Shown here: piece by piece, positions 23,989-44,555 of the stretch
Position numbering within the stretch: position 1 is the first letter of the stretch
Layout: each line of letters begins with the position of its first letter
Origin: Pedobacter mucosus
GTDB lineage: Bacteria > Bacteroidota > Bacteroidia > Sphingobacteriales > Sphingobacteriaceae
Assembly: GCF_022200785.1 (NCBI RefSeq)
Contig: NZ_CP087585.1
Location: 1,116,001-1,180,000, forward strand
Direction: 5' to 3'
Length of the DNA stretch: 64,000 bases
Made by a program: the position numbers and the translations under genes
The notes under the pieces: model-generated
What the model was told of the DNA's origin: nothing
Databases searched by the model: none
What the model saw: only the letters and a program-made list of their open reading frames with translations

Positions 23989-24762
23989 TCAAAATTTTTC
24001 AAACTCTAGCGAATATTTGACTTTTGAAGTTGTAGCTCGCATGAAAATAGTATTGTCGTAGCCTTTCGATAACATTAATTTTCGGATTCTTTTCATATCA
24101 TCAGGGGGACAATTTGAACCGAAGGTGATTTCAACTAGTGCCTCTTTCTTGAAATAATTTGCTCCTGCTTTGTCCTTGAGTATTCTGACTTCTTCCTCAT
24201 AATTCCAAATGCTGGATTTATTCTGGATTAGAAGTTTAATCAGATTTTTGTTGTCCCGAATGTGGTTATATACCGGGTAGTCATCGCTATAATTCACCTT
24301 TATTGGATGCACAAAAAAATCAAGATCTAGAGTAACATCAAATTTCATTGAAATACCTTTGTGACAATTTGCATAGTGTGACCACATGAGTATACTTAGG
24401 TTATGACTTGCAAAACAGCATATTCCTTTGGAGCTGATACTTTTTTTAATGATCTTTTCCAGAGTTGTAGGCCAGTAGTCAGGATCGTCGCTAATACTTT
24501 TTACAATTTTGTCAATTTCATGTTCCGAAATACCAGGCGAAGCTTTTCTTATGTAATCTTTAATTTCCTTTATAGTATTCTGCGTGTCAGGTTGAATTTG
24601 ACAGTCAAAAGGATCATTAAATGATAAAGGATCGGCAAACCATAAACTGGAATCATTAATGATTCTTTCCAAAGTAGTATCTATTTGTCTGTATTTATAA
24701 AGAAATCTAAGTAAGGTTCCATTTAATATATCTCTTTTTATAATGTCGGTTAGAGCTGGCAT
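23989..24762 (-). CDS. DUF2971-domain protein, last gene of GTPase/TIR operon
   Basis: A 257-residue soluble protein with the DUF2971 pattern: LYKYRQ, LWFADPLSFNDPFDC near residues 39-53, then GICCFASHNLSILMWSHYAN with HKGISMKFD, and the late IWNYEEEVRILK. The family is widespread, is often found in defence or accessory loci, and has no settled activity. Its ATG overlaps the GAP1-like stop by one base (TAATG), so it is translationally coupled and belongs to the six-gene operon. A role as an effector or modulator is inference. Confidence 0.82.
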   Translation of the reverse strand: MPALTDIIKRDILNGTLLRFLYKYRQIDTTLERIINDSSLWFADPLSFNDPFDCQIQPDTQNTIKEIKDYIRKASPGISEHEIDKIVKSISDDPDYWPTTLEKIIKKSISSKGICCFASHNLSILMWSHYANCHKGISMKFDVTLDLDFFVHPIKVNYSDDYPVYNHIRDNKNLIKLLIQNKSSIWNYEEEVRILKDKAGANYFKKEALVEITFGSNCPPDDMKRIRKLMLSKGYDNTIFMRATTSKVKYSLEFEKF

Positions 24763-26897
24763 TAACTAAGTTTTTTTATTTTTCGCAAATATTGATATTG
24801 AAATGGCTCAAACTGGATTTGTCTATTTTCAATATGCCTTATAATTTTCATGGTCAGTTGCCGCCCTTTTTTAAAAGTTACGCAATATGCGGCTGCACGA
24901 TAAAACAATTTAGGTTCTTTCAATGTGCTTAAAAATGCCCCTGGGTTCCAATTGTTTTTTATTGTTTTATTACAAAATGTACGAATCAAGTTCTCGCAGT
25001 AGTCCCATGATTCCACTTGATATTGCTTTTTAGGTTTGAATTTTAATATGTTTACTAATGTTTCTATAATTCCCCAATCATCATTATCCATATTCTCTTC
25101 GAAATCTTTCGGAATTATATTCCAATTATGCTGGCCGAGTTGCAAATTTTCTGCAAAGACATAGACATCTTGAAAAGTGACAGATACTAGCCATTCTGAA
25201 TTGGCAATATCATTATTAAAGCCTATCGTTAATAAAAGTGAGGCAATATATTCAACATTACCTCGATACTCCGTTAGTTTAAGTTTCTTATATGCTGTTA
25301 ACCAGGTGTTATGGCTGAAACCGAGAGTGAGAATCTTTCGACTGGCAAGATTATCGAATATTAACGCAAACATTTTGGAATGTATTCTTCTTTCGTTGGT
25401 TCTTAACCACTTGATAAACTGTTGATCTTTTTCTTTTGTAATAAAGTCTTTCCAACCAGCAGTAAATTGTTGTGTTGCTTTACCCTGGTTATACCATTCT
25501 AACGAAGAGTTAAATACTAAATCGTTATTCTTCCAGTATAATTCAAAAATCAATTCACTTCCTACCTCTAATATGACTTTGATAAGACGCGGCCAATCTC
25601 GAATTAAATTATGTTGAAGAAACTGAAAAAATAAATCTCGCTGCTGCTGATGCGGTAATCGCCAGATGGTTTCACTGTAAACGATGTTTTCAGAACGCAA
25701 TATTAGAGGTAAGGCGGTAGCATAGTTCCTTGCAAGCAAATCTAATATTAGGTTATCCGGAAGCTCGATTTCATCCCACAGATGATTAGAAATTCTTCCA
25801 CTTGGACAATCAAAAATCATAGATAGGAGCTCTTCCAGTTGAATTTTTCCATTCTGTAACAAATTGATAAGCCGACGTTCGATATTCAAAGTTATGCCAT
25901 CCAAATAGTCTAAATCGGGCGCAAATAGGAGGTATTTAACAATTTCTTTCTCTGATTCAGGGTAGTCTATTAAGCTATCTTCTGTATAAATTTTTGACTT
26001 AATATTTTTTCCCTGCTTCGGGTTAGAAAAATTAGTCTGAATAAGACTGTTAACCTCATGAAAATCTTTTTCAAAATAAATTAAATGATACAATTTGATT
26101 AAAGGAATATAATTTTTTCTAAAACCGTCTATGTCAGAGCCAAAATTCCACAAAAATTTACGTAAGTCGTTCTTTTTACTAGTATGAAGTATCTTAACCC
26201 AATCGTGAATCGGATCATTTTTGTGATATATTAAAATTTCTGTCTCAGATCGGCTAACAGACTTCAGACTTTCTTCAGGAATTATCTGCAAATCAAACAG
26301 CCGATTGTTCAGTGATTTTAAATTTAAGGCTCCACTACAGAAAAAGAAGTTTCTTCTTAGACGTGGCCACTGATTACTCCAAAGATTAATAATTTCATTT
26401 TCATATTCATTCGGTGAGCTTGCTGGTATAATTATCGGTACACCTGAATTCTCATATAATATTTGATAAATGGAATTATTGATTTCTCTGTTGGAAATAT
26501 TCTCTGAACTCCTTAGTAGTGAATTGAATTCAACTTCAATCTCTGAGTTATACTTATCATATTCGTTTACAATTGGTCGCTCAAACAACTTAACAAGAGC
26601 CAGTAAGTCAGGTATTTTACCTAAATCTGGATATCTAATTAATAAGGTTTGCGTCCAAACACAGCCTGGCCGTCTCATTTCACTTGCATACCAAGTCCTT
26701 GCAAAAGCATATAGGCTTTCAGAGGCCAGAGGATAGCCTGTAATATAACTTTCAAAATTTGCATTAATCAACGTTCCGGAAAGATCAGACTGGAAGAGTA
26801 ATACTTTATTACCTTCTTCACCAATGGGAATAGAACTGGCAAGTACCTGATGCCCGTTTTGATAACCATGCAAAGTTTGTTGTAGTGTGATGATCAT
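24762..26897 (-). CDS. GAP1-N1-type GTPase-associated protein
   Basis: A 711-residue protein. The N-terminal ~130 residues carry the hallmarks of the GAP1-N1 domain: QQTLHGYQNGHQVLASS, then FESYITGYPLA and a FARTWYASEMRRPGCVWTQT segment. This domain was defined by comparative genomics in GTPase-centred conflict systems. The rest is helical and likely corresponds to the middle and C-terminal GAP1 regions. No enzyme motif is seen; a regulatory or scaffold role toward the adjacent GTPases is expected from the family. The start overlaps the upstream GTPase stop (ATGA), giving tight coupling. Confidence 0.8.
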   Translation of the reverse strand: MIITLQQTLHGYQNGHQVLASSIPIGEEGNKVLLFQSDLSGTLINANFESYITGYPLASESLYAFARTWYASEMRRPGCVWTQTLLIRYPDLGKIPDLLALVKLFERPIVNEYDKYNSEIEVEFNSLLRSSENISNREINNSIYQILYENSGVPIIIPASSPNEYENEIINLWSNQWPRLRRNFFFCSGALNLKSLNNRLFDLQIIPEESLKSVSRSETEILIYHKNDPIHDWVKILHTSKKNDLRKFLWNFGSDIDGFRKNYIPLIKLYHLIYFEKDFHEVNSLIQTNFSNPKQGKNIKSKIYTEDSLIDYPESEKEIVKYLLFAPDLDYLDGITLNIERRLINLLQNGKIQLEELLSMIFDCPSGRISNHLWDEIELPDNLILDLLARNYATALPLILRSENIVYSETIWRLPHQQQRDLFFQFLQHNLIRDWPRLIKVILEVGSELIFELYWKNNDLVFNSSLEWYNQGKATQQFTAGWKDFITKEKDQQFIKWLRTNERRIHSKMFALIFDNLASRKILTLGFSHNTWLTAYKKLKLTEYRGNVEYIASLLLTIGFNNDIANSEWLVSVTFQDVYVFAENLQLGQHNWNIIPKDFEENMDNDDWGIIETLVNILKFKPKKQYQVESWDYCENLIRTFCNKTIKNNWNPGAFLSTLKEPKLFYRAAAYCVTFKKGRQLTMKIIRHIENRQIQFEPFQYQYLRKIKKLS

Positions 26898-27838
26898 TCA
26901 AGTAACCAGGTTATGGGTGTTGCTATATCTTTAGAATAATTCACACCATCAAAAATATTTACTCTATCTTCGGGAAGCATCTTAACAAACTCGTCTAATC
27001 CGTCCGTATTATGATAGTCAACACCTTGTGCACTTACACCAAAGAACTTAAAAATTAAATCACTAGCATTACAGTTTAAAAATTGATACAGTAAAGGCAA
27101 ATTTCTTTTCACAACTTCATCAGGCCTCTTATTTGGGAAATTTTCCATTACTTTATCCCATTTGGAGACGACAATAGCAATTTTAAATGGTTCTGCTCTA
27201 CTTAAACTAAATAAAAGGTATTGTAAAATTTCTACTAATTTTACTTGATTAGAGCTATTGATGTGCTGATAAATCTTTGCGTTTGCCAAAGGAGGCTTAC
27301 TTTCCTTTGTATCTACTTTACCACTTTCTTTATTCTCTTCCGTGCCACGCTGTTTTTGCTCAGCCGACTCTTCCATAACATTTTCCAAATCAGCGTATTG
27401 CTCTAATATCTGCCGCTCATCCATAATAGTTCTGGCGATATTATTCTCATGGTAGGGATCTACAAATAAGATTAACTGACGAGAAGATTTCATTAAATCT
27501 AAATAGTCTTCCGTCCATTCCCGATCTTTGAAATGAGCATCGAAAAGTTCTCCAAAGAAATCTGGAATATTGAGAACTGCAACTTTCTGTGAATCCTTAT
27601 ATTGTAAGTTCATTACAACTTCACCAACATCTTTCGCTAAAAAAGTACGGCCGATCTCGGAAAATGATAACCAAGCCTCACTGATCTTATTTAAATATTG
27701 CTGATTGCCTGATTTTAGCGAGTTAAGAAGTAAGGAACAATGAGGACTATTGTTAAGCATTAGTGCCCACAATGCTGCTATATAGGTCGTCTTCCCAGAT
27801 GCAGGCAAGCCAATAATTGAAATTTTTTTTTCTGGCAT
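26894..27838 (-). CDS. P-loop GTPase (double-GTPase/TRAFAC type) of conflict system
   Basis: About 314 residues. The P-loop GLPASGKTT is at residues 10-18, the switch/Walker B region is VLNIPDFFGELF, and the base-specificity motif is VVSKWDKV in place of NKxD. This matches the double-GTPase proteins that pair with GAP1 and GASH genes. A charged insertion (about residues 155-190, EQKQRGTEENKES) looks disordered. I choose ATG 27838 (MPEKKISIIG), one base after the upstream stop; an in-frame upstream start at 27859 would overlap by 20 bases. It probably hydrolyses GTP as a signalling switch with the neighbouring GTPase. Confidence 0.8.
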   Translation of the reverse strand: MPEKKISIIGLPASGKTTYIAALWALMLNNSPHCSLLLNSLKSGNQQYLNKISEAWLSFSEIGRTFLAKDVGEVVMNLQYKDSQKVAVLNIPDFFGELFDAHFKDREWTEDYLDLMKSSRQLILFVDPYHENNIARTIMDERQILEQYADLENVMEESAEQKQRGTEENKESGKVDTKESKPPLANAKIYQHINSSNQVKLVEILQYLLFSLSRAEPFKIAIVVSKWDKVMENFPNKRPDEVVKRNLPLLYQFLNCNASDLIFKFFGVSAQGVDYHNTDGLDEFVKMLPEDRVNIFDGVNYSKDIATPITWLLE

Positions 27839-27839
27839 A

Positions 27840-28859
27840 TTAAAATATAAGTTTGTCAATCATTCTGGTAGATTTTTCCAGAGCAATTGGATTCGGTAAA
27901 TCCTGAGCTTTAACTGTCCATAAATCCATTAACTTGGAAAGACCATGACCAAGTTTATATTTAACAAAAGTCCGAGGCCTCACTGCGATTTGTAAAAAGC
28001 TTAAATCCATGAAACTATTATTAAAATCCCTAGTGAATGGGGCAACAATCAGAGATTCAAAATCAAAATTGATTTCATCTAGCACATCCCATTTAGAAAC
28101 GATTATGGAAAGTCTAATGGATTTAGTGAAAATCTGTTCGTCGATAGCCTTCCTTATAAAGGTTTTTGCTTGTGTTAAAACTGACTGGACTGTTCTAGCA
28201 TTCAGCAGTTTTTCACCATCAATGATATAGCTTATATGTACGGAATCCGTTATGATCTCCAAGTCTTTCATATCATTGGTATTACCCTTTGCTCGTTGTA
28301 CTTTTTCTCCTGCTATATCTGAAATCAGTAAGTGCAATGCCTTTTTCGCGTTAGGATCATGCTTTAAAGCGAGATGCAAAAATCGGAATTCGTCGCTTTT
28401 AGTTCTCTCTGTGTCGTAATCGCTATTGGCTGACGCTAATCTTGAATAAAAGCATCGTTTTTCAAACCCAATTTGAGTCAGTGACCCTGCAAAATGCAAT
28501 TTGTTAAATACACCAACCTGAAACATCTCAAATAATGTAGCAAGAATAGTTGTCTTGCCACTGTCCTGTTCACCCAAAATAAAAATCTTATTTACTGGGT
28601 ACCTGTAAGACACCTGCGTTAGTTCATCAAGTTTAAATTCTTCGCCTTTGAAAAGTTTAAATGTGTTGGTGATGACCGGTTTTTGAATGGTCGATGGGCC
28701 TTGGCCATTTTCCTCCGCCGCACTATCAACATCAAGTCCTGCAATATTCTCATCCAAATAAAAATGTGGACATTGAGTAAGATCTTCAATCCCCTCTAAA
28801 CACTTGCCATCTTTTTTTACTGTACAATCCTCCTGATCGCATTTCTTAAGTCCGGCCAT
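27840..28859 (-). CDS. TRAFAC-type GTPase with N-terminal four-cysteine cluster
   Basis: A 339-residue protein. The N-terminus has Cys7, Cys12, Cys20 and Cys30, spaced like a small zinc-binding knuckle. The GTPase domain follows, with P-loop GEQDSGKTT at 96-104, Walker B-like LISDIAGEK and specificity motif IIVSKWDVL. It is the partner GTPase of the next gene; two GTPases side by side with GASH and GAP1 is the expected make-up of these systems. The gene lies two bases after the GASH-like stop. The C-terminal third is helical without further motifs. Zinc binding and GTP hydrolysis are inferred. Confidence 0.8.
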   Translation of the reverse strand: MAGLKKCDQEDCTVKKDGKCLEGIEDLTQCPHFYLDENIAGLDVDSAAEENGQGPSTIQKPVITNTFKLFKGEEFKLDELTQVSYRYPVNKIFILGEQDSGKTTILATLFEMFQVGVFNKLHFAGSLTQIGFEKRCFYSRLASANSDYDTERTKSDEFRFLHLALKHDPNAKKALHLLISDIAGEKVQRAKGNTNDMKDLEIITDSVHISYIIDGEKLLNARTVQSVLTQAKTFIRKAIDEQIFTKSIRLSIIVSKWDVLDEINFDFESLIVAPFTRDFNNSFMDLSFLQIAVRPRTFVKYKLGHGLSKLMDLWTVKAQDLPNPIALEKSTRMIDKLIF

Positions 28860-28860
28860 A

Positions 28861-29901
28861 CTACCTAAGGTTATGTAGAAGAAAAAGTTCTTGAAGAATC
28901 TGCGATGCCAAGGCAGATGGCTGGAAAGTTTTCTTTAAATCACCACCGTTAAACTCAGAAGCGTATATATTGGTCCAATCGGATGATTTGCCTGTGGTGA
29001 TAAATCTTGAAAATGCGGTGAGAATAGGGGTAAACTCAGTTTCAGGTTTAAATCCATTTAAAATAGAGGTGATCTCTGAGCCTTCAAATTTGCTAATCAT
29101 ATCAACAGGCGAATACGCCTTCTCTGAACCCTTTGATTGAATACAGTTTGAAATTGCTTTATTTATTATCGCGTCTATTTTTCTGTTGCTCAATGAAAAT
29201 TCGATAATATCAAATATCTCATTAGCAATAATTGGTATAGCCTTAGGCAATCCTATAGCTTTTAACGGCTGCTCATAAGTTTGACTGGCTTCACCAAACA
29301 GCCACCATAATATATTAGTTTCCTCGGAAAATACTTTCTGAGACTGGAGCAAAGAATTGACCGCAGTTGTTAAAACGGAATTATCCGCAGCTACAAATGC
29401 ATAACCCGGCACTTCGCTACGATTCGTAAGGTCGGTTATCTCTGTTCGTTGTTCTTCAAGATTAGTTTCACGCAGAATTGCCGATTGTTCGCTTAGAAAC
29501 GTCGTAGCATTGCTCAAAACAGGAATATTGGAAGCAATTTCATATTGCCCTAAGAAGTTAATCGATTTTATTGCCAAACCAATTGAAATGTTCAAATGAA
29601 AATCTTCTTCAAGTTGGAAACAAATCAAGATCCCGGCAAGAACTTGCAAAAGATGGTCATTTCCGCTAACAGGGAATACAGGGTCTGCGTCTTTGAATGC
29701 TTTTATAAATTCCTTTCTTGAATCTTCACTAACTACCGGTAATCCCCAATACATCCTAATGATGTCCAGCCAAAAGTCCATATCGTCGGTGTCCAATAAT
29801 TCCCTTATGGCAGTGATTCTGAAGGCCTGGGTTTCCGCGGTTAATTGACTGTCTACAGGTCTATACCAATCTGCGAAGTTATATTCTGTTGTTGAGCTCA
29901 T
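28861..29901 (-). CDS. GASH-like all-helical GTPase-system protein
   Basis: A 346-residue, almost wholly helical acidic protein without membrane segments or enzyme motifs. The N-terminal WYRPVDSQLTAETQAFRITA then RELLDTDDMDFWLDIIRMYW, and its slot between the TIR gene and the GTPases, fit the GTPase-associated system helical (GASH) family. I recognise the pattern but cannot run a profile search. It probably works as an adaptor between effector and GTPases. It starts seven bases after the TIR gene and ends two bases before the GTPase start. Confidence 0.68.
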   Translation of the reverse strand: MSSTTEYNFADWYRPVDSQLTAETQAFRITAIRELLDTDDMDFWLDIIRMYWGLPVVSEDSRKEFIKAFKDADPVFPVSGNDHLLQVLAGILICFQLEEDFHLNISIGLAIKSINFLGQYEIASNIPVLSNATTFLSEQSAILRETNLEEQRTEITDLTNRSEVPGYAFVAADNSVLTTAVNSLLQSQKVFSEETNILWWLFGEASQTYEQPLKAIGLPKAIPIIANEIFDIIEFSLSNRKIDAIINKAISNCIQSKGSEKAYSPVDMISKFEGSEITSILNGFKPETEFTPILTAFSRFITTGKSSDWTNIYASEFNGGDLKKTFQPSALASQILQELFLLHNLR

Positions 29902-29907
29902 TAATTT

Positions 29908-30762
29908 TTATTTTATGAATGGATTTTTAAGATTACCAAATGATTTAATTTCGTTTATGCAATTCCATAAAGAGGCAATTAACTCTTGTTCCTTTACGAG
30001 TTTAAATACTTCCTTATCTCGTTCAATGATGTTTTCATGATTCAGAGCGCCAATATCAATTCCGATAGAATTAATTATTTTTAATTTATCAAAGTCGTTT
30101 AAACTTAGATAGGCTCTTATGGTATTTTGAATTGGTGACAGCATATTTGTCTCCTTTTTTTGTAATGTAAATGTAAACTGGCTCAGAATTTCTTTAGCAA
30201 TTTCGGTATTAATTTTTTCTTGAATGTCATTTGCAATTGATTCTTTTACTGCTTCACCAACAGAGGAAGCTTCAAAAAATTGTCTAACATGGTCAAATGT
30301 GGGATTATCATTTAATATCATCTTAAGTATTCCCTCATTACCTGATGGAAAAAAATGACCGTTGAAATATTGCTGTAAAATAACGGGAATGTTTTCTATG
30401 TCCCCGTCATCTGGTACGATTGGGAAAAACTTTTCATTAATTGTTTGATTGTTAATCAATTCCTGAGTAATAATTCCACCTTCATAAATCACTCCGCGTC
30501 CTTTTCCCAGCTCCTCTTTCTTTCGAAATCTACTTAGATAGGCGGGAGTACAAACAATCAAAACCACTTCGCTGGATTCAATTTGATCTGCCATCCATGT
30601 TGGCCATCCCATTTTCGGTGGTCTGTGAGCAAATAAGTGATCAGTCGTAACCAATACTTTACCATTTGCGTTAGTAGTGATCCACTGGGCAAGATCTGTG
30701 ACCTCCTTCTTTAGTTTTTCGCTCTCCCATGCGTAACTTATAAAAACGTTAATTACAGACAA
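29908..30762 (-). CDS. TIR/SEFIR-domain protein, first gene of conflict operon
   Basis: A 284-residue protein. Residues 1-150 form a TIR/SEFIR domain: FISYAW at 7-12, VVLIVCTPAY near 66-75 and VIYEGGIITQELI with Glu94 in the position expected for a catalytic or structural glutamate, then FFPIVP. The remaining ~130 residues are helical and may bind the adjacent GASH-like protein. Bacterial TIR domains often degrade NAD+ or make cyclic ADP-ribose products; SEFIR relatives may only be adaptors. The only usable start is TTG (30762), since a TAA lies four codons upstream, so translation may be weak. As the first gene it likely carries the operon promoter just upstream. Confidence 0.83.
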   Translation of the reverse strand: MSVINVFISYAWESEKLKKEVTDLAQWITTNANGKVLVTTDHLFAHRPPKMGWPTWMADQIESSEVVLIVCTPAYLSRFRKKEELGKGRGVIYEGGIITQELINNQTINEKFFPIVPDDGDIENIPVILQQYFNGHFFPSGNEGILKMILNDNPTFDHVRQFFEASSVGEAVKESIANDIQEKINTEIAKEILSQFTFTLQKKETNMLSPIQNTIRAYLSLNDFDKLKIINSIGIDIGALNHENIIERDKEVFKLVKEQELIASLWNCINEIKSFGNLKNPFIK

Positions 30763-30897: not shown

Positions 30898-31313
30898 GTG
30901 AAAGGTGGTAAGCTAAACAATATTCAATCCCAGTTTTCCGAGATTGATTTTAATCTTTCATCCAGTATAGATTAATTGGATCAAATGGCCAGTACCACTG
31001 GGGATGAAATAAAACAAATCCGCAATCAGAAATCAGAATTAAATAAACCCGCGGACGAGAAATATCTAAAGTTAATCAAGTCAAATTTCCGACTCGCCTG
31101 TTGCGCTTCACAATTTTTGCGAGTTCTCGATAAAACCTCAAGATAGAGACCTTCACAAACCTCATTTCACCAACCGCCAAACTAGGCATCTCCAAAACAC
31201 TCGAAATCAAATTGATCCCAACAAATTTTTTGGTAGATAAAAATGGTCAAGTTGTCGCACTTAATTTGCATGGCGAAAATCTTAAAAAGAAAGTCGAAAT
31301 GTTATTGAAATAA
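30898..31313 (+). pseudogene. Remnant of thioredoxin-fold (TlpA/DUF4369-like) protein
   Basis: The first frame reads VKGGKLNNIQSQFSEID, broken by TAA at 30973, and continues DEIKQIRNQKSELNKPADEK to TAG at 31144. In another frame, LEIKLIPTNFLVDKNGQVVA and LNLHGENLKKKVEMLLK ends at TAA 31311. That end has the cis-Pro (IPTNF) of thioredoxin-like thiol-disulfide proteins typical of Bacteroidota envelopes. The CxxC centre is deleted. It lies upstream of, and divergent from, the TIR operon. Confidence 0.6.
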
Positions 31314-36086: not shown

Positions 36087-37049
36087 TTATTCTGATGCGT
36101 ATTCGTTGAAAGTCAGATTCCGCTTTAATATCTGTACGTCTCCATTTTTATGAAATACAGCCGCGACAAGCATAAATTCGCCCCATACTCTTAATCCCAG
36201 CCCGAATTTGGTTTCCTTCGTTCTAATCGTAACTTCTGGATGTTTGAAAGAATCATCATCTAAAAAATAGACAACCTTCCGTATATCTTCTAGAATTTCT
36301 GAATCACCAACCACGAAAATGTTAAATTGATGGCTGATTTTGCCCGTTCCAATGTTATTGGGATTTATAATTTTAGTGTTGTGAACGAGTTCGATTCCGC
36401 GGTAGAGACTTGACTGACTTCCTGGTTTCTTATAGAAATATTGCAATGCCTTAATATCCCCAGCACTTAGCATTCCATTATTGTTCCAATTGGGGTTACA
36501 ATAGTTCATTATAGACTGTGGGTCACATTGGTCCATATGCCAGTCACCGTCATCTCCTTGCCGGCCCTCTAAACAATTTGGAGGTTTGCATTCCAATTTG
36601 TTCTGTTCATGTGCAAAACCAAGAACATGACCAAATTCATGTACTGCGATTGCTTTAATGCAAAATTCCCTGGTATGATTTTGATTCGGACATCCCCATT
36701 TCTGGAAAGTGAAATTGAGAATAACCGCTCTAGGCTTATTTTTTATCTCGTTCCCGAGCTTAATCGTTTCTGGGTTCTCATCGCTAATGTAGATATGTAC
36801 ATCCCCATCTTTCTGCTTCGCGTCCGTCCAGTCAGTGAACTTAACTGAAGAGTATTTCTCCCAAGTTTGCGCTATAGCTTCTTGTACCCATTTGCGTTCG
36901 GTTAGGTTACTGGGGTTCGGATTATCCCAACACACAGATATGCGGTTGGTTTGCCACATCTTTGTCCTAAGCGGAAATGCATAGTTTTGAGCATTTGCCA
37001 CTAAACTTAAGAATATAATAATACAGCCCAATAAAAGGGTCTTTTTCAT
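36087..37049 (-). CDS. Secreted zinc metalloprotease (metzincin)
   Basis: A 320-residue protein with a signal peptide (LLLGCIIIFLSLVANA). The metzincin zinc site is VHEFGHVLGFAHEQ: His137, Glu138, His141 and His147. The Met-turn follows in SIMNYC (Met181). The HE right after the third His resembles astacin/matrixin-type enzymes. Several cysteines around KLECKPPNCL suggest disulfides. Residues after ~210 form a separate beta-rich domain. It should cleave protein substrates outside the cytoplasm. The barrel-like gene lies directly downstream. Confidence 0.87.
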   Translation of the reverse strand: MKKTLLLGCIIIFLSLVANAQNYAFPLRTKMWQTNRISVCWDNPNPSNLTERKWVQEAIAQTWEKYSSVKFTDWTDAKQKDGDVHIYISDENPETIKLGNEIKNKPRAVILNFTFQKWGCPNQNHTREFCIKAIAVHEFGHVLGFAHEQNKLECKPPNCLEGRQGDDGDWHMDQCDPQSIMNYCNPNWNNNGMLSAGDIKALQYFYKKPGSQSSLYRGIELVHNTKIINPNNIGTGKISHQFNIFVVGDSEILEDIRKVVYFLDDDSFKHPEVTIRTKETKFGLGLRVWGEFMLVAAVFHKNGDVQILKRNLTFNEYASE

Positions 37050-39263: not shown

Positions 39264-40544
39264 TCAGTCTTTAGAGTAGTTAGAAAGAAGTTTAACCACG
39301 TCATCCTGAATACTGTCAATTAGGTCCCAGTCCTGTGCAATGTATGTATCGGTCACGGTGCGATCTGTTTGATTTAACGCCTCGGCAACATCGTCCTTTG
39401 AATACCCACATTTTCTTCTTGCCCATGTTCCAACACAGTGTCTCATGTCATAGAAATCGATTCCGGGAATATTTGTAGCTTGACTGACAACTTTCAGTCC
39501 TTCATCCAATGCCTGGTTTAGTCCTTCACGTGTAGAATATCGCTGCTGTAACTTTCCTGCATACTTATCAAGTAGTGGTCTAGCTTCCCTAATCACTTTA
39601 ACACTGAAAAAGGCTTTATCTTTTCTTTTATTCCTGGTTTTCGCCCGATTATAGTCAATTCGTTCTCTAATTTTTTCCCCTGTAGGAAGCTCGTAAAGGT
39701 CAGCTGCATTCATGCCTAGAAGATATAGTGACAACATGGCCAGATCCCTTGCCAGTTCCGCTCTTGAATTAGGGGGAAGATCCGCATCCCTAAATTTTAT
39801 AATTTCTGAAACAGGTCGGTCACGGTGTGCAGTGACTGGTGCACTGCCAACTTTGTATTTTTTGAATGGATAGTGAAAAATTTTTATAGTTCCCAAATCC
39901 TCGTCATTATATATATTTCTCGCTTCATTGAAAAGTAATCTCAGATCCCTCATATGGTTGTGAAGCCCGGAATCTGATAAACCTTTCTGTATATATGTGC
40001 GGATATTACCACTATGGTTTCTTCTGGTGAGTTCGCGATCTTGGCGTAGGTAAAGTTCATAACTTTTAAGAAAATTGAAATTTATCTCTGTTATCGGAAT
40101 AAATGGCAACCTGAAATAATCCATCAAACTATTTCTAACAGTTGCCAGGGTCCGGGCACTGCTTGCTTTGGGTGAATTCTGCTTTGCTGATATAAAATTG
40201 TTGCAGAATTCCAAAAAGTCAATCTGATCAGGCTTATTATGTTTGTCCAAACTTACCAGGCTATCTCTTAACTGTCCCGCTGTGATCTTATCAATAAGCT
40301 CAGAATGATCACTAATCCAGTCCCTATATTTTTTTAAATCTGGAGCAATTCTGTCTAGTATGAACTTATCCTTGATCACAAGTGTATCACTTTCTTTACT
40401 TTTTTTTCCGAGCTGTTTTAAAGTGACATAGTGCACCGTGTCAATATATGCTGCCTTGCTGTTATGCCATATTCTAACCTTGACGTTCCAGGTTCCATCT
40501 GATTTTTTATCAGATTTCTTAATGCTAGTTGCTACAGTTGCCAT
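39264..40544 (-). CDS. Tyrosine recombinase/integrase
   Basis: A 426-residue site-specific integrase. The N-terminal arm-binding region (VRIWHNSKAAYIDTV) is followed by a SAM-like core-binding domain (FLEFCNNFISAKQNS to LYLRQDRELTRRNH) and the catalytic domain ending DMRHCVGTWARRK and TVTDTYIAQDW, with the nucleophilic Tyr and the second Arg. The first Arg position reads LLGMNAADLYEL and the His before the Tyr is not evident (ALNQTDRTVT), which departs from the textbook set but is seen in some Bacteroidota integrases. It sits about 310 bases from the tRNA 3' end, so it probably mediated island insertion there. Confidence 0.85.
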   Translation of the reverse strand: MATVATSIKKSDKKSDGTWNVKVRIWHNSKAAYIDTVHYVTLKQLGKKSKESDTLVIKDKFILDRIAPDLKKYRDWISDHSELIDKITAGQLRDSLVSLDKHNKPDQIDFLEFCNNFISAKQNSPKASSARTLATVRNSLMDYFRLPFIPITEINFNFLKSYELYLRQDRELTRRNHSGNIRTYIQKGLSDSGLHNHMRDLRLLFNEARNIYNDEDLGTIKIFHYPFKKYKVGSAPVTAHRDRPVSEIIKFRDADLPPNSRAELARDLAMLSLYLLGMNAADLYELPTGEKIRERIDYNRAKTRNKRKDKAFFSVKVIREARPLLDKYAGKLQQRYSTREGLNQALDEGLKVVSQATNIPGIDFYDMRHCVGTWARRKCGYSKDDVAEALNQTDRTVTDTYIAQDWDLIDSIQDDVVKLLSNYSKD

Positions 40545-40856
40545 TGTCCGTATATTTAGTTGTAATTTATCAGGATCCTTCCAGAGATTATCATTCTTGA
40601 ACCTAGTAACTATTCAACTTCCATTAGGATTTCGTAAGTCTTTATAAAATTATCAAGCACAATAGGTTATTATTAAGAATGTTGAAATTCCTAAAAAATC
40701 CGTGAGGTTTCCGCAAGGTTTTGATACTAAGTTAAGCAAAAAGTGGTGCTGAACCTAATAAATAGCATTTATGTAAAATATGATTTTTTTTTGAAAATGG
40801 GCTTTCAAATTAATAAAAAAGCCCTTCAAGCTTACTTAAAGGGCGATTTTTGTTTG
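40545..40856. other. Integrase promoter and probable att region
   Basis: About 310 bases between the integrase start and the tRNA 3' end. It includes the tRNA terminator. As the integrase is adjacent and the tRNA 3' end points here, the attachment core most likely lies at or just past 40857; the matching repeat would be at the other island end, outside the window. Confidence 0.5.
40815..40844 (-). terminator. Intrinsic terminator of tRNA-Met(CAT)
   Basis: On the minus strand GCCCTTTAAG and CTTGAAGGGC form a stem (plus-strand arms about 40821-40830 and 40835-40844), followed by a run of T (plus-strand AAAAAA at 40815-40820). It lies 13 bases beyond the tRNA. Confidence 0.8.
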
Positions 40857-40930
40857 TGGGCCCAGCTGGGCTCGAACCAGCGACCAAAAGATTATGAGTC
40901 TTCTACTCTAACCAGCTGAGCTATAGGCCC
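40857..40930 (-). tRNA. tRNA with CAT anticodon (Met, or Ile2)
   Basis: A 74-nt cloverleaf on the minus strand. The acceptor arms are GGGCCTA and TGGGCCC with discriminator A. The D-arm region is GCTCAGCTGGTTAGAGT, the anticodon stem AAGA/TCTT holds loop CTCATAA (anticodon CAT), and the T-loop is GGTTCGAGCC. CCA is not encoded. The acceptor begins with a normal G-C pair, so it is not the initiator; elongator Met is most likely, though lysidine-modified Ile2 cannot be ruled out. The 3' end faces the integrase. Confidence 0.93.
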
Positions 40931-41274: not shown

Positions 41275-42489
41275 ATGAATTATAAACAACTGTTGGAAAA
41301 CGTTAAACAACACGTTAAAAACTATTTTGAAACCAATAATGATCCACGTTTGGTTTATCATAATTTTGATCATACTAAAGAAGTTGTAAACGCTGCACAA
41401 CAAATAGCCAATCATTTTCAATTAAATGAGCAAGATTTCTTTGTAGTAACTGTTGCTGCATATTTTCATGATACGGGTTATTTTGATGATGCCTTACATC
41501 ATGAAGCTAAAGGTGCAGCACTTGCAGTCGAGTTTTTAAAGAAACATAAGGTAGATGAGGAGGTTTGCGAAAATGTAACTTCTGCGATATTAAGTACTAA
41601 AATACCTCAAAGCCCGATTACCCAGCTTGATAAAATTATTTGTGATGCTGACTTGTTCCACCTTGGTCTGCCAGATTTCCGTGAAAAAGGGAAACTTATG
41701 CATAAAGAATTTGAATTGATTCATAAAAAAGACATCAGCAAACTTGATTGGCGTAAACGCGATATCCAATTTATGGAAGCGCACCATTATCATACAGACT
41801 ATGCAAACTTGCTGTTAAATGATCAAAAGCAAAAAAATATAGAAAAGTTAAAAAGTAAGTTACCTGTTCAGGAAGAAATAAAACTCGAGCAAGAAGAGCC
41901 AATAAATTTTGCGCCTGTTATTGTTAGCGGCAAAAATAAAAAGGATAAAGATAATCGGCCAGATAAAGGAATTGAAACGATGTTTAGGATTACTTCATCT
42001 AACAATCAGCGGCTAAGTGATATGGCAGATAATAAAGCTCACATTTTAATTACCGTTAATTCAATTATGCTATCCTTAATTGTGAGTTTACTTTTAAGGA
42101 GATTAGAAGATCATAGCAATCTAATTATACCAACATTTATTCTTTTAATGGTCTGTTTGGCTTGTGTAGTCATTTCAATTTTATCTACTCGTCCGTCTAT
42201 CCCGAAAGGAGAATTTACTAAAGAAGATATGGATAATAAAAAGGTAAATCTTTTATTCTTTGGGAACTTTTATAAAATGAGTTTACCAAGTTACACCGAT
42301 GGGATGATCAAAGTAATGAACGATAAAGATTTCCTTTATGGCACACTTATTACTGATGTTTACTCACAGGGAGTAGTACTTGGCAGAAAATATAAACTTA
42401 TTCGCTTGGCTTATAATGTTTTTATGTTTGGATTAATTGCCGCGGTATTTGCATTTATAATCGCTTACGCAGCTTACGGTAAACTTTAA
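41275..42489 (+). CDS. HD-domain hydrolase fused to Pycsar-effector-like (DUF5706) membrane domain
   Basis: A 404-residue protein. The N-terminal ~200 residues form an HD phosphohydrolase domain (YHNFDHTKEVV, AYFHDTGYF with the HD pair, and DADLFHLG). Next come a linker and a PycTM/DUF5706 domain (MFRITSSNNQRLSDMADNKA) with two hydrophobic helices around residues 255-310 and a third at the C-terminus. DUF5706 alone is the membrane effector of Pycsar systems that respond to cyclic pyrimidine nucleotides. The HD part could degrade such a signal; this is inference. It overlaps the polyphosphate kinase start by one base and so forms an operon with it. Confidence 0.83.
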   Translation: MNYKQLLENVKQHVKNYFETNNDPRLVYHNFDHTKEVVNAAQQIANHFQLNEQDFFVVTVAAYFHDTGYFDDALHHEAKGAALAVEFLKKHKVDEEVCENVTSAILSTKIPQSPITQLDKIICDADLFHLGLPDFREKGKLMHKEFELIHKKDISKLDWRKRDIQFMEAHHYHTDYANLLLNDQKQKNIEKLKSKLPVQEEIKLEQEEPINFAPVIVSGKNKKDKDNRPDKGIETMFRITSSNNQRLSDMADNKAHILITVNSIMLSLIVSLLLRRLEDHSNLIIPTFILLMVCLACVVISILSTRPSIPKGEFTKEDMDNKKVNLLFFGNFYKMSLPSYTDGMIKVMNDKDFLYGTLITDVYSQGVVLGRKYKLIRLAYNVFMFGLIAAVFAFIIAYAAYGKL

Positions 42490-44555
42490 TGAGTAAAATT
42501 ATTGCAACATCTTTTTTTAATAGAGATTTAAGTTGGTTAAAATTTAACGAACGGATTTTAATGGAAGCTGAAAAGGAAACTGTTCAGTTATTGGAGAGAA
42601 TAAAATTTTTGTCTATTTTTTCTTCTAATCTTGATGAATTTTATCGCGTAAGAATGCCGGTGCTTCTGGCTTTAGAAAAGTTAAGCAATAAGGATAATAA
42701 TGAAATTCATATCGAGGATGATCTTTTAAAAACGGCTAATCAATTAATTGCTGATCAGCAGCAACGTTTTGGAAAAACGCTACAGCTGAATATTATTCCA
42801 CTTTTAAAGCAAAACCAAATAAATTTAATTTATGGTCATGCTTTTCCATTAGAGATTGAAAAAGAAATAAAGCGTTATTTTTTAAGTCAGGTTTTGGCTT
42901 TTCTGCAGCCTGTTTATATTGAAAATGATGCTAAATTTTTCCCAACAAATAATGAGCTTTATTTATTAGTAATTATAAAAAAGGACAACGATACTAAAGC
43001 GGTAATTCTAAATATTCCATCGGATCAATTACCTCGTTTCTATAAAATTGATCAAGAAAATGAAACGTTTATTGTTTTTTTAGATGATATTGTACGCTTC
43101 CATTTGCCTATAATTTTTCCTTCATTTGAAGTTGAAAATTGTTATAGTTTTAAAATTACTAGAGATGCTGAAATTGATTTAAAAGATGAATATTCTGGTA
43201 ATTTATCAGAGCAGCTTGAAAAACAATTACTGAAAAGAGATTTAGGTTTAGCAACTCGTTTTCTTCATCAACCAGGTATTCCGGTAAATGTTATAGACTT
43301 ACTTAAAAAGCTTTTCAACCTAAAAAAAGCAAATATGGTTGAAGGTGGACAGTATCACAACCTCAAGGATTTAATGTCTTTCCCGGTAAGTTCAAAATTG
43401 CTATCAAACCAATCATGGCCTAAATTATGCAATACAGATAATATTGAAGGCACATTAACGGATGCAATTTATAAAAATGATATTTTAATTCATACACCAT
43501 ATCAAAGTTACGATAGCATTTTAAGATTTTTTAATGAGGCTGCAATAGATGCAGATGTTAAAGAAATCTACGTAACACTTTATCGTGTTGCTAGTGATTC
43601 TAAAATTGTTAATGCTTTAATCAGCGCTGCTAAAAATGGCAAGAAAGTTACCGTATTGGTAGAACTTAAAGCCCGTTTCGATGAGGCAAATAATATTAAG
43701 TGGGCAAAAAAAATGAAGTCTGCCGGCGTAAATATTATATACAGTGTTACTGCCTTAAAAGTTCACGCAAAGGTTGCGTTAGTGAAGAGAAAAGATGGAG
43801 ATCGAATGCACTATTCCGGTTTGTTTTCTACAGGCAACTTTAATGAAAGTACGGCGTCTTTTTACACAGATCATGTTTTAATGACCGCTAACAAAGAAAT
43901 GTTGAGAGAGGTTGAATTGTTATTTATTTTTCTTGCTAAAAAGGTAAAACCATCTGCAGCAGAATTTATACAATTTAATTATTTATTAGTAGCTCAATTT
44001 AACTTGCAAAATACCTTTCTAGATTCAATTGATAGAGAAATTGCAAATGCAAAATTAGGAAAGCCCGCAGGCATTACGATTAAAATGAACAATCTGGAAG
44101 AGAAGATCCTGATCAATAAATTGTACGAGGCATCGCAAGCTGGCGTTAAAATTGAGATGATTGTGCGTAGCATCTGCAGACTTATTCCAGGTGTTAAGGG
44201 AATGAGTGAAAATATTAAAGTAACCAGAATTGTTGATCGATACCTGGAGCATGGTCGGATTTTTATATTTCATAATTTAGGGGAAAATTCAATTTATTTA
44301 GGTTCGGCAGATTGGATGAATAGAAATATTTATCGCCGAATTGAAGTTTGCTTTCCCATTTATGATCCTAAAATAAAACAAGAAATTTTAGATATTATCG
44401 AAATTCAAAAACTGGATAATGTGCAAGCTGTTACAATTAATGAACACATGAATAACATTCCAATTGTAAATCAAAATGCCATTGTAGCCTCTCAAAATAC
44501 TATTTATCAATACTTAAAAAGTAAAATTAATCATAATGAAGAATTTAAAAATTAA
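42489..44555 (+). CDS. ppk1: Polyphosphate kinase 1
   Basis: A 688-residue protein, full family length. It opens with the PPK N-domain (FFNRDLSWLKFNERIL). The catalytic PLD-like half includes LKVHAKVALVKR with the autophosphorylated His region, LFSTGNFNESTASFYTD, YLEHGRIFIFHN and YLGSADWMNRN. It reversibly makes inorganic polyphosphate from ATP, usually at the membrane. The start ATG overlaps the upstream stop (TAATG), and the next gene starts 20 bases before its stop, so all three are translationally coupled. Confidence 0.95.
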   Translation: MSKIIATSFFNRDLSWLKFNERILMEAEKETVQLLERIKFLSIFSSNLDEFYRVRMPVLLALEKLSNKDNNEIHIEDDLLKTANQLIADQQQRFGKTLQLNIIPLLKQNQINLIYGHAFPLEIEKEIKRYFLSQVLAFLQPVYIENDAKFFPTNNELYLLVIIKKDNDTKAVILNIPSDQLPRFYKIDQENETFIVFLDDIVRFHLPIIFPSFEVENCYSFKITRDAEIDLKDEYSGNLSEQLEKQLLKRDLGLATRFLHQPGIPVNVIDLLKKLFNLKKANMVEGGQYHNLKDLMSFPVSSKLLSNQSWPKLCNTDNIEGTLTDAIYKNDILIHTPYQSYDSILRFFNEAAIDADVKEIYVTLYRVASDSKIVNALISAAKNGKKVTVLVELKARFDEANNIKWAKKMKSAGVNIIYSVTALKVHAKVALVKRKDGDRMHYSGLFSTGNFNESTASFYTDHVLMTANKEMLREVELLFIFLAKKVKPSAAEFIQFNYLLVAQFNLQNTFLDSIDREIANAKLGKPAGITIKMNNLEEKILINKLYEASQAGVKIEMIVRSICRLIPGVKGMSENIKVTRIVDRYLEHGRIFIFHNLGENSIYLGSADWMNRNIYRRIEVCFPIYDPKIKQEILDIIEIQKLDNVQAVTINEHMNNIPIVNQNAIVASQNTIYQYLKSKINHNEEFKN

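What the first reader, a model, noticed from the sequence alone, without database searches (positions are those of the whole stretch)
23989..30762. Six-gene GTPase-coupled TIR/SEFIR conflict operon
On the minus strand, TIR/SEFIR, GASH-like helical, TRAFAC GTPase with Cys cluster, second P-loop GTPase, GAP1-N1-like and DUF2971 genes are packed with junctions of at most 7 bases or short overlaps. GAP1 and double-GTPase proteins are known from comparative genomics as parts of prokaryotic conflict systems. This particular combination, with a stand-alone TIR/SEFIR at the front and DUF2971 at the end, may be a poorly described variant. Sequence shows the genes, motifs and coupling; the immune function and the TIR-as-effector role are inference.
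Basis: partly seen in the sequence, partly recalled or inferred. Interest (0 to 1): 0.9.

Follow-up and report, generated by a model that had tools for sequence, protein, structure and literature searches.

The report
GTPase-controlled TIR defence operon, six genes
A bacterium (probably a Pedobacter) carries a compact six-gene operon of a predicted immune system for which no experiment was found, in which two GTPases and partner proteins probably hold back an NAD-destroying TIR enzyme; five genes are standard parts and the sixth is an undescribed add-on.

Summary
Six minus-strand genes (23989-30762) have junctions of +6, +1, +1, -4 and -1 bases. Profiles identify SEFIR/TIR, GASH, DO-GTPase2 with a four-Cys head, DO-GTPase1, GAP1-N1 and DUF2971.

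The first five are the GAP1-N1 GTPase-centric conflict system predicted by Kaur et al. (eLife 2020), who already list TIR among its effectors. Its C-terminus (about 209-282) is a GAAD adaptor domain; a profile of 63 non-TIR effectors finds it at E 1.3e-11. The order effector-GAAD > GASH > GTPase2 > GTPase1 > GAP1 is exact in 60 of 83 sources. The effector part is swapped while the GAAD stays. Glu94 is invariant in the 27 TIR-GAAD proteins aligned.

DUF2971 is a lineage-specific addition: absent from the 71 other sources with enough sequence after GAP1, but apparently kept in Pedobacter sp. AK017 (95%) and on a divergent 65,095-base contig (58%). I found it in no text on these systems.

Likely mechanism: the GTPase/GAP1 switch holds, then releases, a GAAD-tethered TIR NADase. 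This is inferred, without experiment. DUF2971's function is unknown; no structure was obtained.

The parts
29908..30762 (-). Effector: SEFIR/TIR domain (res. 4-137) with invariant Glu94, linker, C-terminal GAAD adaptor domain (res. about 209-282) ending in an NPF tail; 284 aa, TTG start
   Evidence: Pfam SEFIR 8.1e-8, TIR_2 2e-7; PADLOC bSEFIR 3.2e-26 over 4-137; solved SEFIR chains 5y8e/5y8f, profile E about 2e-17; GAAD profile from 63 non-TIR effectors E 1.3e-11; PF19976 in 14 of 27 relatives, below cut-off for the window protein itself; same start in two near relatives P0242 and P0243
28861..29901 (-). GASH protein (GTPase-associated system helical), 346 aa
   Evidence: Pfam GASH 4.4e-10 over res. 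152-342
27840..28859 (-). DO-GTPase2 with N-terminal four-Cys zinc-ribbon-like head; P-loop GEQDSGKT at 96, DIAGE at 181, SKWD at 255; 339 aa
   Evidence: Pfam 3.1e-37; motifs; Cys head
26894..27838 (-). DO-GTPase1; P-loop GLPASGKT, DFFGE, SKWD. The longest ORF starts at TTG 27859; ATG at 27838 is likelier
   Evidence: Pfam 2.8e-59; motifs at 17, 100, 232 counted from the TTG; junctions
24762..26897 (-). GAP1 with N1-type N-terminal domain, 711 aa
   Evidence: Pfam GAP1-N1 1.4e-30; all 36 aligned relatives match PF20012
23989..24762 (-). DUF2971 protein, 257 aa, start codon overlaps the GAP1 stop by one base; lineage-specific addition
   Evidence: Pfam 1.9e-7; PADLOC PDC-S31 2.6e-50; invariant NDP, WSHY and W-x-Y-E-x-E-x-R positions in 66 aligned

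Best explanation
A GAP1-N1 GTPase-centric conflict system with a TIR/SEFIR-GAAD effector and a DUF2971 add-on. Shown: gene order, families, the GAAD fusion, swapping of the effector part, intact P-loops, invariant Glu94. Inferred: the two DO-GTPases, GASH and GAP1 form a sensing and threshold complex; GAP1 holds the effector through its GAAD; a trigger such as phage infection changes the GTPase state so that the SEFIR/TIR domains assemble and cleave NAD+ through Glu94, stopping growth of the infected cell. DUF2971 would be an accessory effector or modifier, translated by coupling to GAP1.
For: All five core families above Pfam cut-off. Exact core order in 60 of 83 sources, with 238 of 240 core junctions at most 30 bases and a median of -4. 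In 70 of 70 proteins recruited the GAAD-like part ends within 20 residues of the C-terminus, and 62 of the 70 lie directly before GASH. A profile from non-TIR effectors finds the window protein. Effector labels swap on the GAP1 tree: TIR and PNP intermix in one clade of 10 rows, and an alpha/beta-hydrolase sits among phosphoesterases; labels were checked by Pfam for a few representatives. Sporadic distribution: 2 of 145 genus genomes, own included, and 29 plasmid records. Glu94 invariant in 27 of 27, aligned with a Glu of the solved SEFIR chains 5y8e/5y8f. A passage of PMC12774641 states that activated TIR, SIR2 or SEFIR domains cleave NAD+. Kaur et al. predicted this system and the coupling role of GAAD.
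Against: No experiment on any GAP1-N1 system was found. The trigger is unknown. The window TIR protein itself falls below the Pfam GAAD cut-off (13.1 against 23.6 bits). DO-GTPase1 proteins mostly lack a canonical [TNS]KxD motif (present in 9 of 75), so GTP specificity of that subunit is unproven. The GAP1-M and GAP1-C domains named by Kaur were not matched by Pfam in any of 36 relatives at E 0.1. GAP1 was found on no phage or viral contig at the sensitivity used. Kaur et al. found no special association of GAP1-N1 systems with a multicellular habit, unlike their MoxR-vWA systems.
Confidence: 0.72

Rival explanations
1. The SEFIR/TIR domain makes a nucleotide signal rather than depleting NAD+, and a partner (possibly DUF2971) responds to it, as in two-part TIR systems.
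For: Kaur et al. note that nucleotide-related effectors of these systems are on several occasions accompanied by a second putative responder, SLATT. DUF2971 is a second protein overlapping GAP1 by one base with an enzyme-like set of invariant positions.
Against: Four other TIR-GAAD operons with ample sequence after GAP1 (L005, L012, L016, L025) lack DUF2971; L006 and L034 have only 768 and 419 bases there and cannot be judged. No SLATT family appeared in the Pfam scans of the neighbouring proteins that were scanned.
Confidence: 0.15
2. DUF2971 is an unrelated passenger or independent defence gene that happens to sit behind GAP1.
For: A DUF2971 profile finds only the window among 84 sources and none of 12 further stretches, five of which repeat earlier loci and two of which show no GAP1 by my profile. 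DUF2971 relatives occur in 21 of 145 genus genomes, GAP1 in 2 of 145, own included in both. PADLOC lists the family as candidate PDC-S31 (the reading of 'S' as single-gene is recalled).
Against: One-base overlap with GAP1. Pedobacter sp. AK017 has DUF2971 (HDC92_002848) and TIR (HDC92_002853) five locus tags apart on contigs of the same length. GAP1 59%, TIR 65% and DUF2971 58% share contig length 65095.
Confidence: 0.4
3. The operon serves a stress or developmental role, not immunity.
For: No direct phage evidence; trigger unknown.
Against: Sporadic presence, interchangeable effectors, SEFIR domain matching a known defence family.
Confidence: 0.1

Closest known systems
GAP1-N1 GTPase-centric conflict systems (Kaur, Burroughs, Iyer, Aravind 2020, PMC7159879)
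   Same: GAP1-N1, GASH, two DO-GTPases, one with an N-terminal zinc-ribbon-type Cys head; TIR named as an effector; effector coupled through GAAD
   Different: A DUF2971 gene follows GAP1; the word DUF2971 does not occur in the main text (figures and supplements not seen)
bSEFIR defence protein (PADLOC PDLC03957)
   Same: SEFIR domain, residues 4-137, E 3.2e-26
   Different: Only positions 39-163 of the 412-position model match; the rest of the window protein ends in a GAAD, and it sits in a GTPase operon
DUF2971 / PADLOC candidate PDC-S31
   Same: Residues 19-255 match positions 7-256 of the 259-position model PDLC04990, E 2.6e-50
   Different: Here coupled to a GAP1-N1 operon; the family's matches in 20 other genus genomes are 23-45% identical over the matched part and lie in genomes without a GAP1 hit

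Membership tests
GAP1-N1 GTPase-centric system | GAP1 protein with N1-type N-terminal domain | tested here: met
   PF20012 E 1.4e-30, over cut-off
GAP1-N1 GTPase-centric system | GAP1-M and GAP1-C domains | tested here: inconclusive
   The protein continues to 711 aa, but no M or C domain was named by Pfam in 36 relatives at E 0.1; whether Pfam holds models suited to the N1 type was not checked
GAP1-N1 GTPase-centric system | Two paralogous DO-GTPases, one with a zinc-ribbon head | tested here: met
   PF19993 3.1e-37 and PF19975 2.8e-59; four Cys in the first 60 residues of the window G2, and exactly four in 43 of 75 G2 proteins; zinc binding not tested
GAP1-N1 GTPase-centric system | GASH protein | tested here: met
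   PF19994 4.4e-10
GAP1-N1 GTPase-centric system | Variable effector coupled by GAAD, EAD1 or fusion to GAP1 | tested here: met
   GAAD at about 209-282: non-TIR profile 1.3e-11, PF19976 in 14 of 27 relatives; the direct Pfam hit of the window protein is sub-threshold
GAP1-N1 GTPase-centric system | Anti-viral or conflict function | not testable with these tools
   No experiment; a prediction in the source paper too
bSEFIR single-gene defence | Whole-protein bSEFIR architecture | tested here: not met
   Only 125 of 412 model positions match
Thoeris or another named TIR system | Partner proteins of the named system nearby | tested here: not met
   No such PADLOC model among the hits shown for 17 distinct window proteins (8, 10, one in both); for the UvrD-type protein only 25 of 54 families were shown

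The most novel reading that the evidence does not exclude
DUF2971 is a second, enzymatic effector that works with the TIR NADase in a two-effector GAP1-N1 system, so that one GTPase switch fires two enzymes. A fold and chemistry for DUF2971 were not obtained; its invariant NDP, WSHY and W-x-Y-E-x-E-x-R positions look like an active site.
Probability: 0.25. Interest if true: 0.6.

Novelty: new variant of a known kind. Interest (0 to 1): 0.38.

Why it matters
The DO-GTPase/GAP1 systems were predicted in 2020, and I found no experimental test in the held library. This copy is compact, has all the named gene types, lies in a single-contig genome, and has an effector whose output (NAD+ loss) is easy to measure, so it makes the prediction testable: does a GTPase switch control a GAAD-tethered TIR enzyme? 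The DUF2971 add-on could lead to a function for a widespread unnamed family.

Tried and rejected
Tried without result: an att repeat of the tRNA-Met end in the window (one site only) and direct repeats marking an island (nothing convincing); GAP1 in viral contigs and phages (none); solved structures for GAP1 and DUF2971 by sequence (nothing significant); DUF2971 beside GAP1 in 12 further stretches (none). An idea that DUF2971 has an ADP-ribosyltransferase-like fold came from motif resemblance recalled from memory; no call supports it and it is not claimed. Rejected: 'stand-alone TIR' (GAAD fusion); the operon as an unknown system.

Full report
OBSERVATION. Six minus-strand ORFs lie at 30762-23989. 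With the internal ATG at 27838 as the start of DO-GTPase1, the junctions from first to last gene are +6, +1, +1, -4 and -1 bases. Pfam matches above curated cut-offs, in order: SEFIR/TIR_2, GASH, DO-GTPase2, DO-GTPase1, GAP1-N1, DUF2971. PADLOC adds bSEFIR for the first protein and the candidate family PDC-S31 for the last. NCBIfam gives nothing for four of the six and only weak hits below cut-off for the two GTPases. The host is probably a Pedobacter: a same-genus genome (G807) has a GAP1 contig of 252,218 bases, the length of the Pedobacter sp. L105 contig of L014, and the nearest named DUF2971 and TIR relatives are from Pedobacter sp. AK017.

WHAT IT IS. The main text of Kaur et al. 2020 (PMC7159879; I saw passages, the outline and abstract, and section 28 in full) describes GAP1-N1 GTPase-centric systems: GAP1, GASH, two DO-GTPases of which one has a zinc ribbon, and a variable effector, TIR being one of those named. 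The effector is coupled by fusion to GAP1, by EAD1, or by a small helical adaptor, GAAD. The window's first five genes fit this description.

THE TIR PROTEIN IS A GAAD FUSION. Pfam gives the window protein only a sub-threshold GAAD hit (13.1 bits against 23.6, residues 213-271). Its last 134 residues, used iteratively, recruit 70 of 1490 proteins predicted from the window and 83 fetched loci; in 70 of 70 the matched part ends within 20 residues of the C-terminus, and 62 lie directly before GASH. To reduce circularity I built a profile from the 63 non-TIR members alone: it finds the window protein at E 1.3e-11 (residues 209-282) and the six other TIR proteins, and no other non-member at E up to 10. 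The 63 rows were first recruited with the window's C-terminus, so their choice and boundaries, though not their letters, depend on it. Scanned one by one, 14 of 27 TIR relatives match PF19976 at E 0.001 or better; the window protein does not. An NPF lies in the last 30 residues of 30 of the 70, including all seven TIR ones. The 27 were 21 of the 45 homologues listed, nearly all full-length ones, plus six loci; P0244 and P0248 (full-length) and the 22 partial ones were left out.

CONSERVATION AND MODULARITY. A scan of named genomes with a 36-row GAP1 alignment gave 142 relatives, of which the best 80 were kept. Of 83 sources in which GAP1 was called (one more, L004, had none by my profile), 60 have the exact order effector-GAAD, GASH, GTPase2, GTPase1, GAP1; 66 have GASH-G2-G1-GAP1 and 73 have G2-G1-GAP1. 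The remainder include short contigs, loci where my 200-base gap rule ended the walk, and two 3.3-kb pieces; I did not sort these causes out. Of 240 core junctions 238 are at most 30 bases, median -4, range -143 to 140. The effector parts fall into groups of 48, 7 (TIR), 6 and 6, two singles, and one too short to place. Pfam on ten chosen proteins shows calcineurin-like phosphoesterase, PNP_UDP_1 and alpha/beta-hydrolase parts, one group without a Pfam name, and a GAP1 directly fused to PNP_UDP_1 (L104). The '48' label rests on BLAST linkage; only L040, L014 and L039 of it were checked by Pfam, and one member (L007) of the PNP group. On a 68-row GAP1 tree (quick method; many long branches and skewed compositions flagged) the five labels need 7 changes against 19.3 in shuffles. 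TIR and PNP mix inside one well-supported clade of 10, and the single hydrolase sits next to phosphoesterases at short distance. So effectors cluster by lineage but are swapped on a constant core.

DISTRIBUTION. GAP1-N1 was found in 1 of 59 relatives (the own genome only), 4 of 395 phylum genomes including own, one of them below cut-off, 10 of 399 family genomes including own, and, by protein, 2 of 145 genus genomes including own; in 29 plasmid records, none with 80% of the query covered; in no phage or viral contig. This fits sporadic horizontal spread.

DUF2971. A DUF2971 profile finds no copy among the called proteins of the other 83 sources or of 12 extra stretches. Of the 83 sources with a GAP1 call, 72 including the window have at least 900 bases after it; in 11 the sequence ends too soon to judge. 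The family occurs in 21 of 145 genus genomes, the other 20 remote from this copy, so it often lives without GAP1. For a real link: Pedobacter sp. AK017 has HDC92_002848 (DUF2971, 95%) and HDC92_002853 (TIR, 95%) on contigs of equal length 272817, the spacing expected of the same six genes; and one contig length, 65095, is listed for GAP1 at 59%, TIR at 65% and DUF2971 at 58% identity. These are inferences from locus tags and contig lengths; I could not read those contigs, and no GAP1 entry with contig length 272817 is in the list (it may be merged into the window's own 90% cluster). Other close GAP1 and TIR contigs (for example 152046, 182451, 295934) show no matching DUF2971 contig among the 120 of 464 listed, where only the longest contig per cluster is given. 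Sixty-six DUF2971 proteins share invariant NDP, WSHY and W-x-Y-E-x-E-x-R positions. No solved relative exists at E up to 10 for the profile, and a structure job was accepted but never collected. 'DUF2971' or 'PF11185' occurs in one paper of the held library, a genome reannotation (listing only); DUF2971 together with 'anti-phage' in none.

MECHANISM. Shown: parts, order, fusion, swapping, conserved Glu. Inferred: the GTPase pair with GASH and GAP1 is the sensor or threshold; GAAD tethers the effector to GAP1 (Kaur's prediction); release or clustering of SEFIR/TIR domains cleaves NAD+ at Glu94. Support for SEFIR as an NAD+-cleaving domain is one passage of PMC12774641; passages of PMC13142454 treat SEFIR as an outgroup to TIRs and link a catalytic Glu of TIR-STING to NAD+ depletion. 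Against a simple picture: GTPase1 proteins rarely keep a [TNS]KxD motif (9 of 75; GTPase2 66 of 71), although the window copy has SKWD in both.

VERDICT. A sound observation of a known kind of system for which I found no experiment, with a correction (GAAD fusion) and one lineage-specific addition (DUF2971). Searches behind 'no experiment': of a library that lacks most subscription papers.

Noticed in passing
window 39264-40930: A tyrosine-recombinase-type integrase (Phage_int_SAM_5) lies just downstream of tRNA-Met. In five relatives the two genes right of it (41275-44555) are conserved, while apart from low-identity paralogue-type hits nothing of the window's left side lies within about 14 kb; tRNA-Met itself was found there in 2 of 5. 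This suggests an integration hotspot; the left end of any island was not found.
   Followed up: partly
window about 31134-31313, + strand: A short open stretch upstream of the operon reads like the C-terminal end of a thioredoxin-like protein, possibly a gene remnant (family recalled, not searched).
   Followed up: no
L015, L018, L020, L029, L030, L036: Six GAAD effectors (Acidobacteriota, Nitrospirota, Verrucomicrobiota) share an N-terminal part; the one scanned (L018) has no convincing Pfam match there: an unnamed effector type of these systems.
   Followed up: partly
L098:4092-10068: GAP1 is split over two overlapping ORFs (187 and 494 aa) and the first-gene effector is short with only a sub-threshold phosphoesterase match: a decayed copy or a sequencing error.
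   Followed up: no
window 41275-42489: An HD-type protein (recalled) whose C-terminus matches Pycsar/CBASS 2TM effector models (PycTM 1.4e-15), next to a polyphosphate-kinase-like gene (recalled); both conserved in the five relatives looked at, so probably core genes, not defence.
   Followed up: partly
window 36087-37049: Matrixin-type metalloprotease fused to a prokaryotic YEATS domain, a pairing that looks unusual.
   Followed up: no
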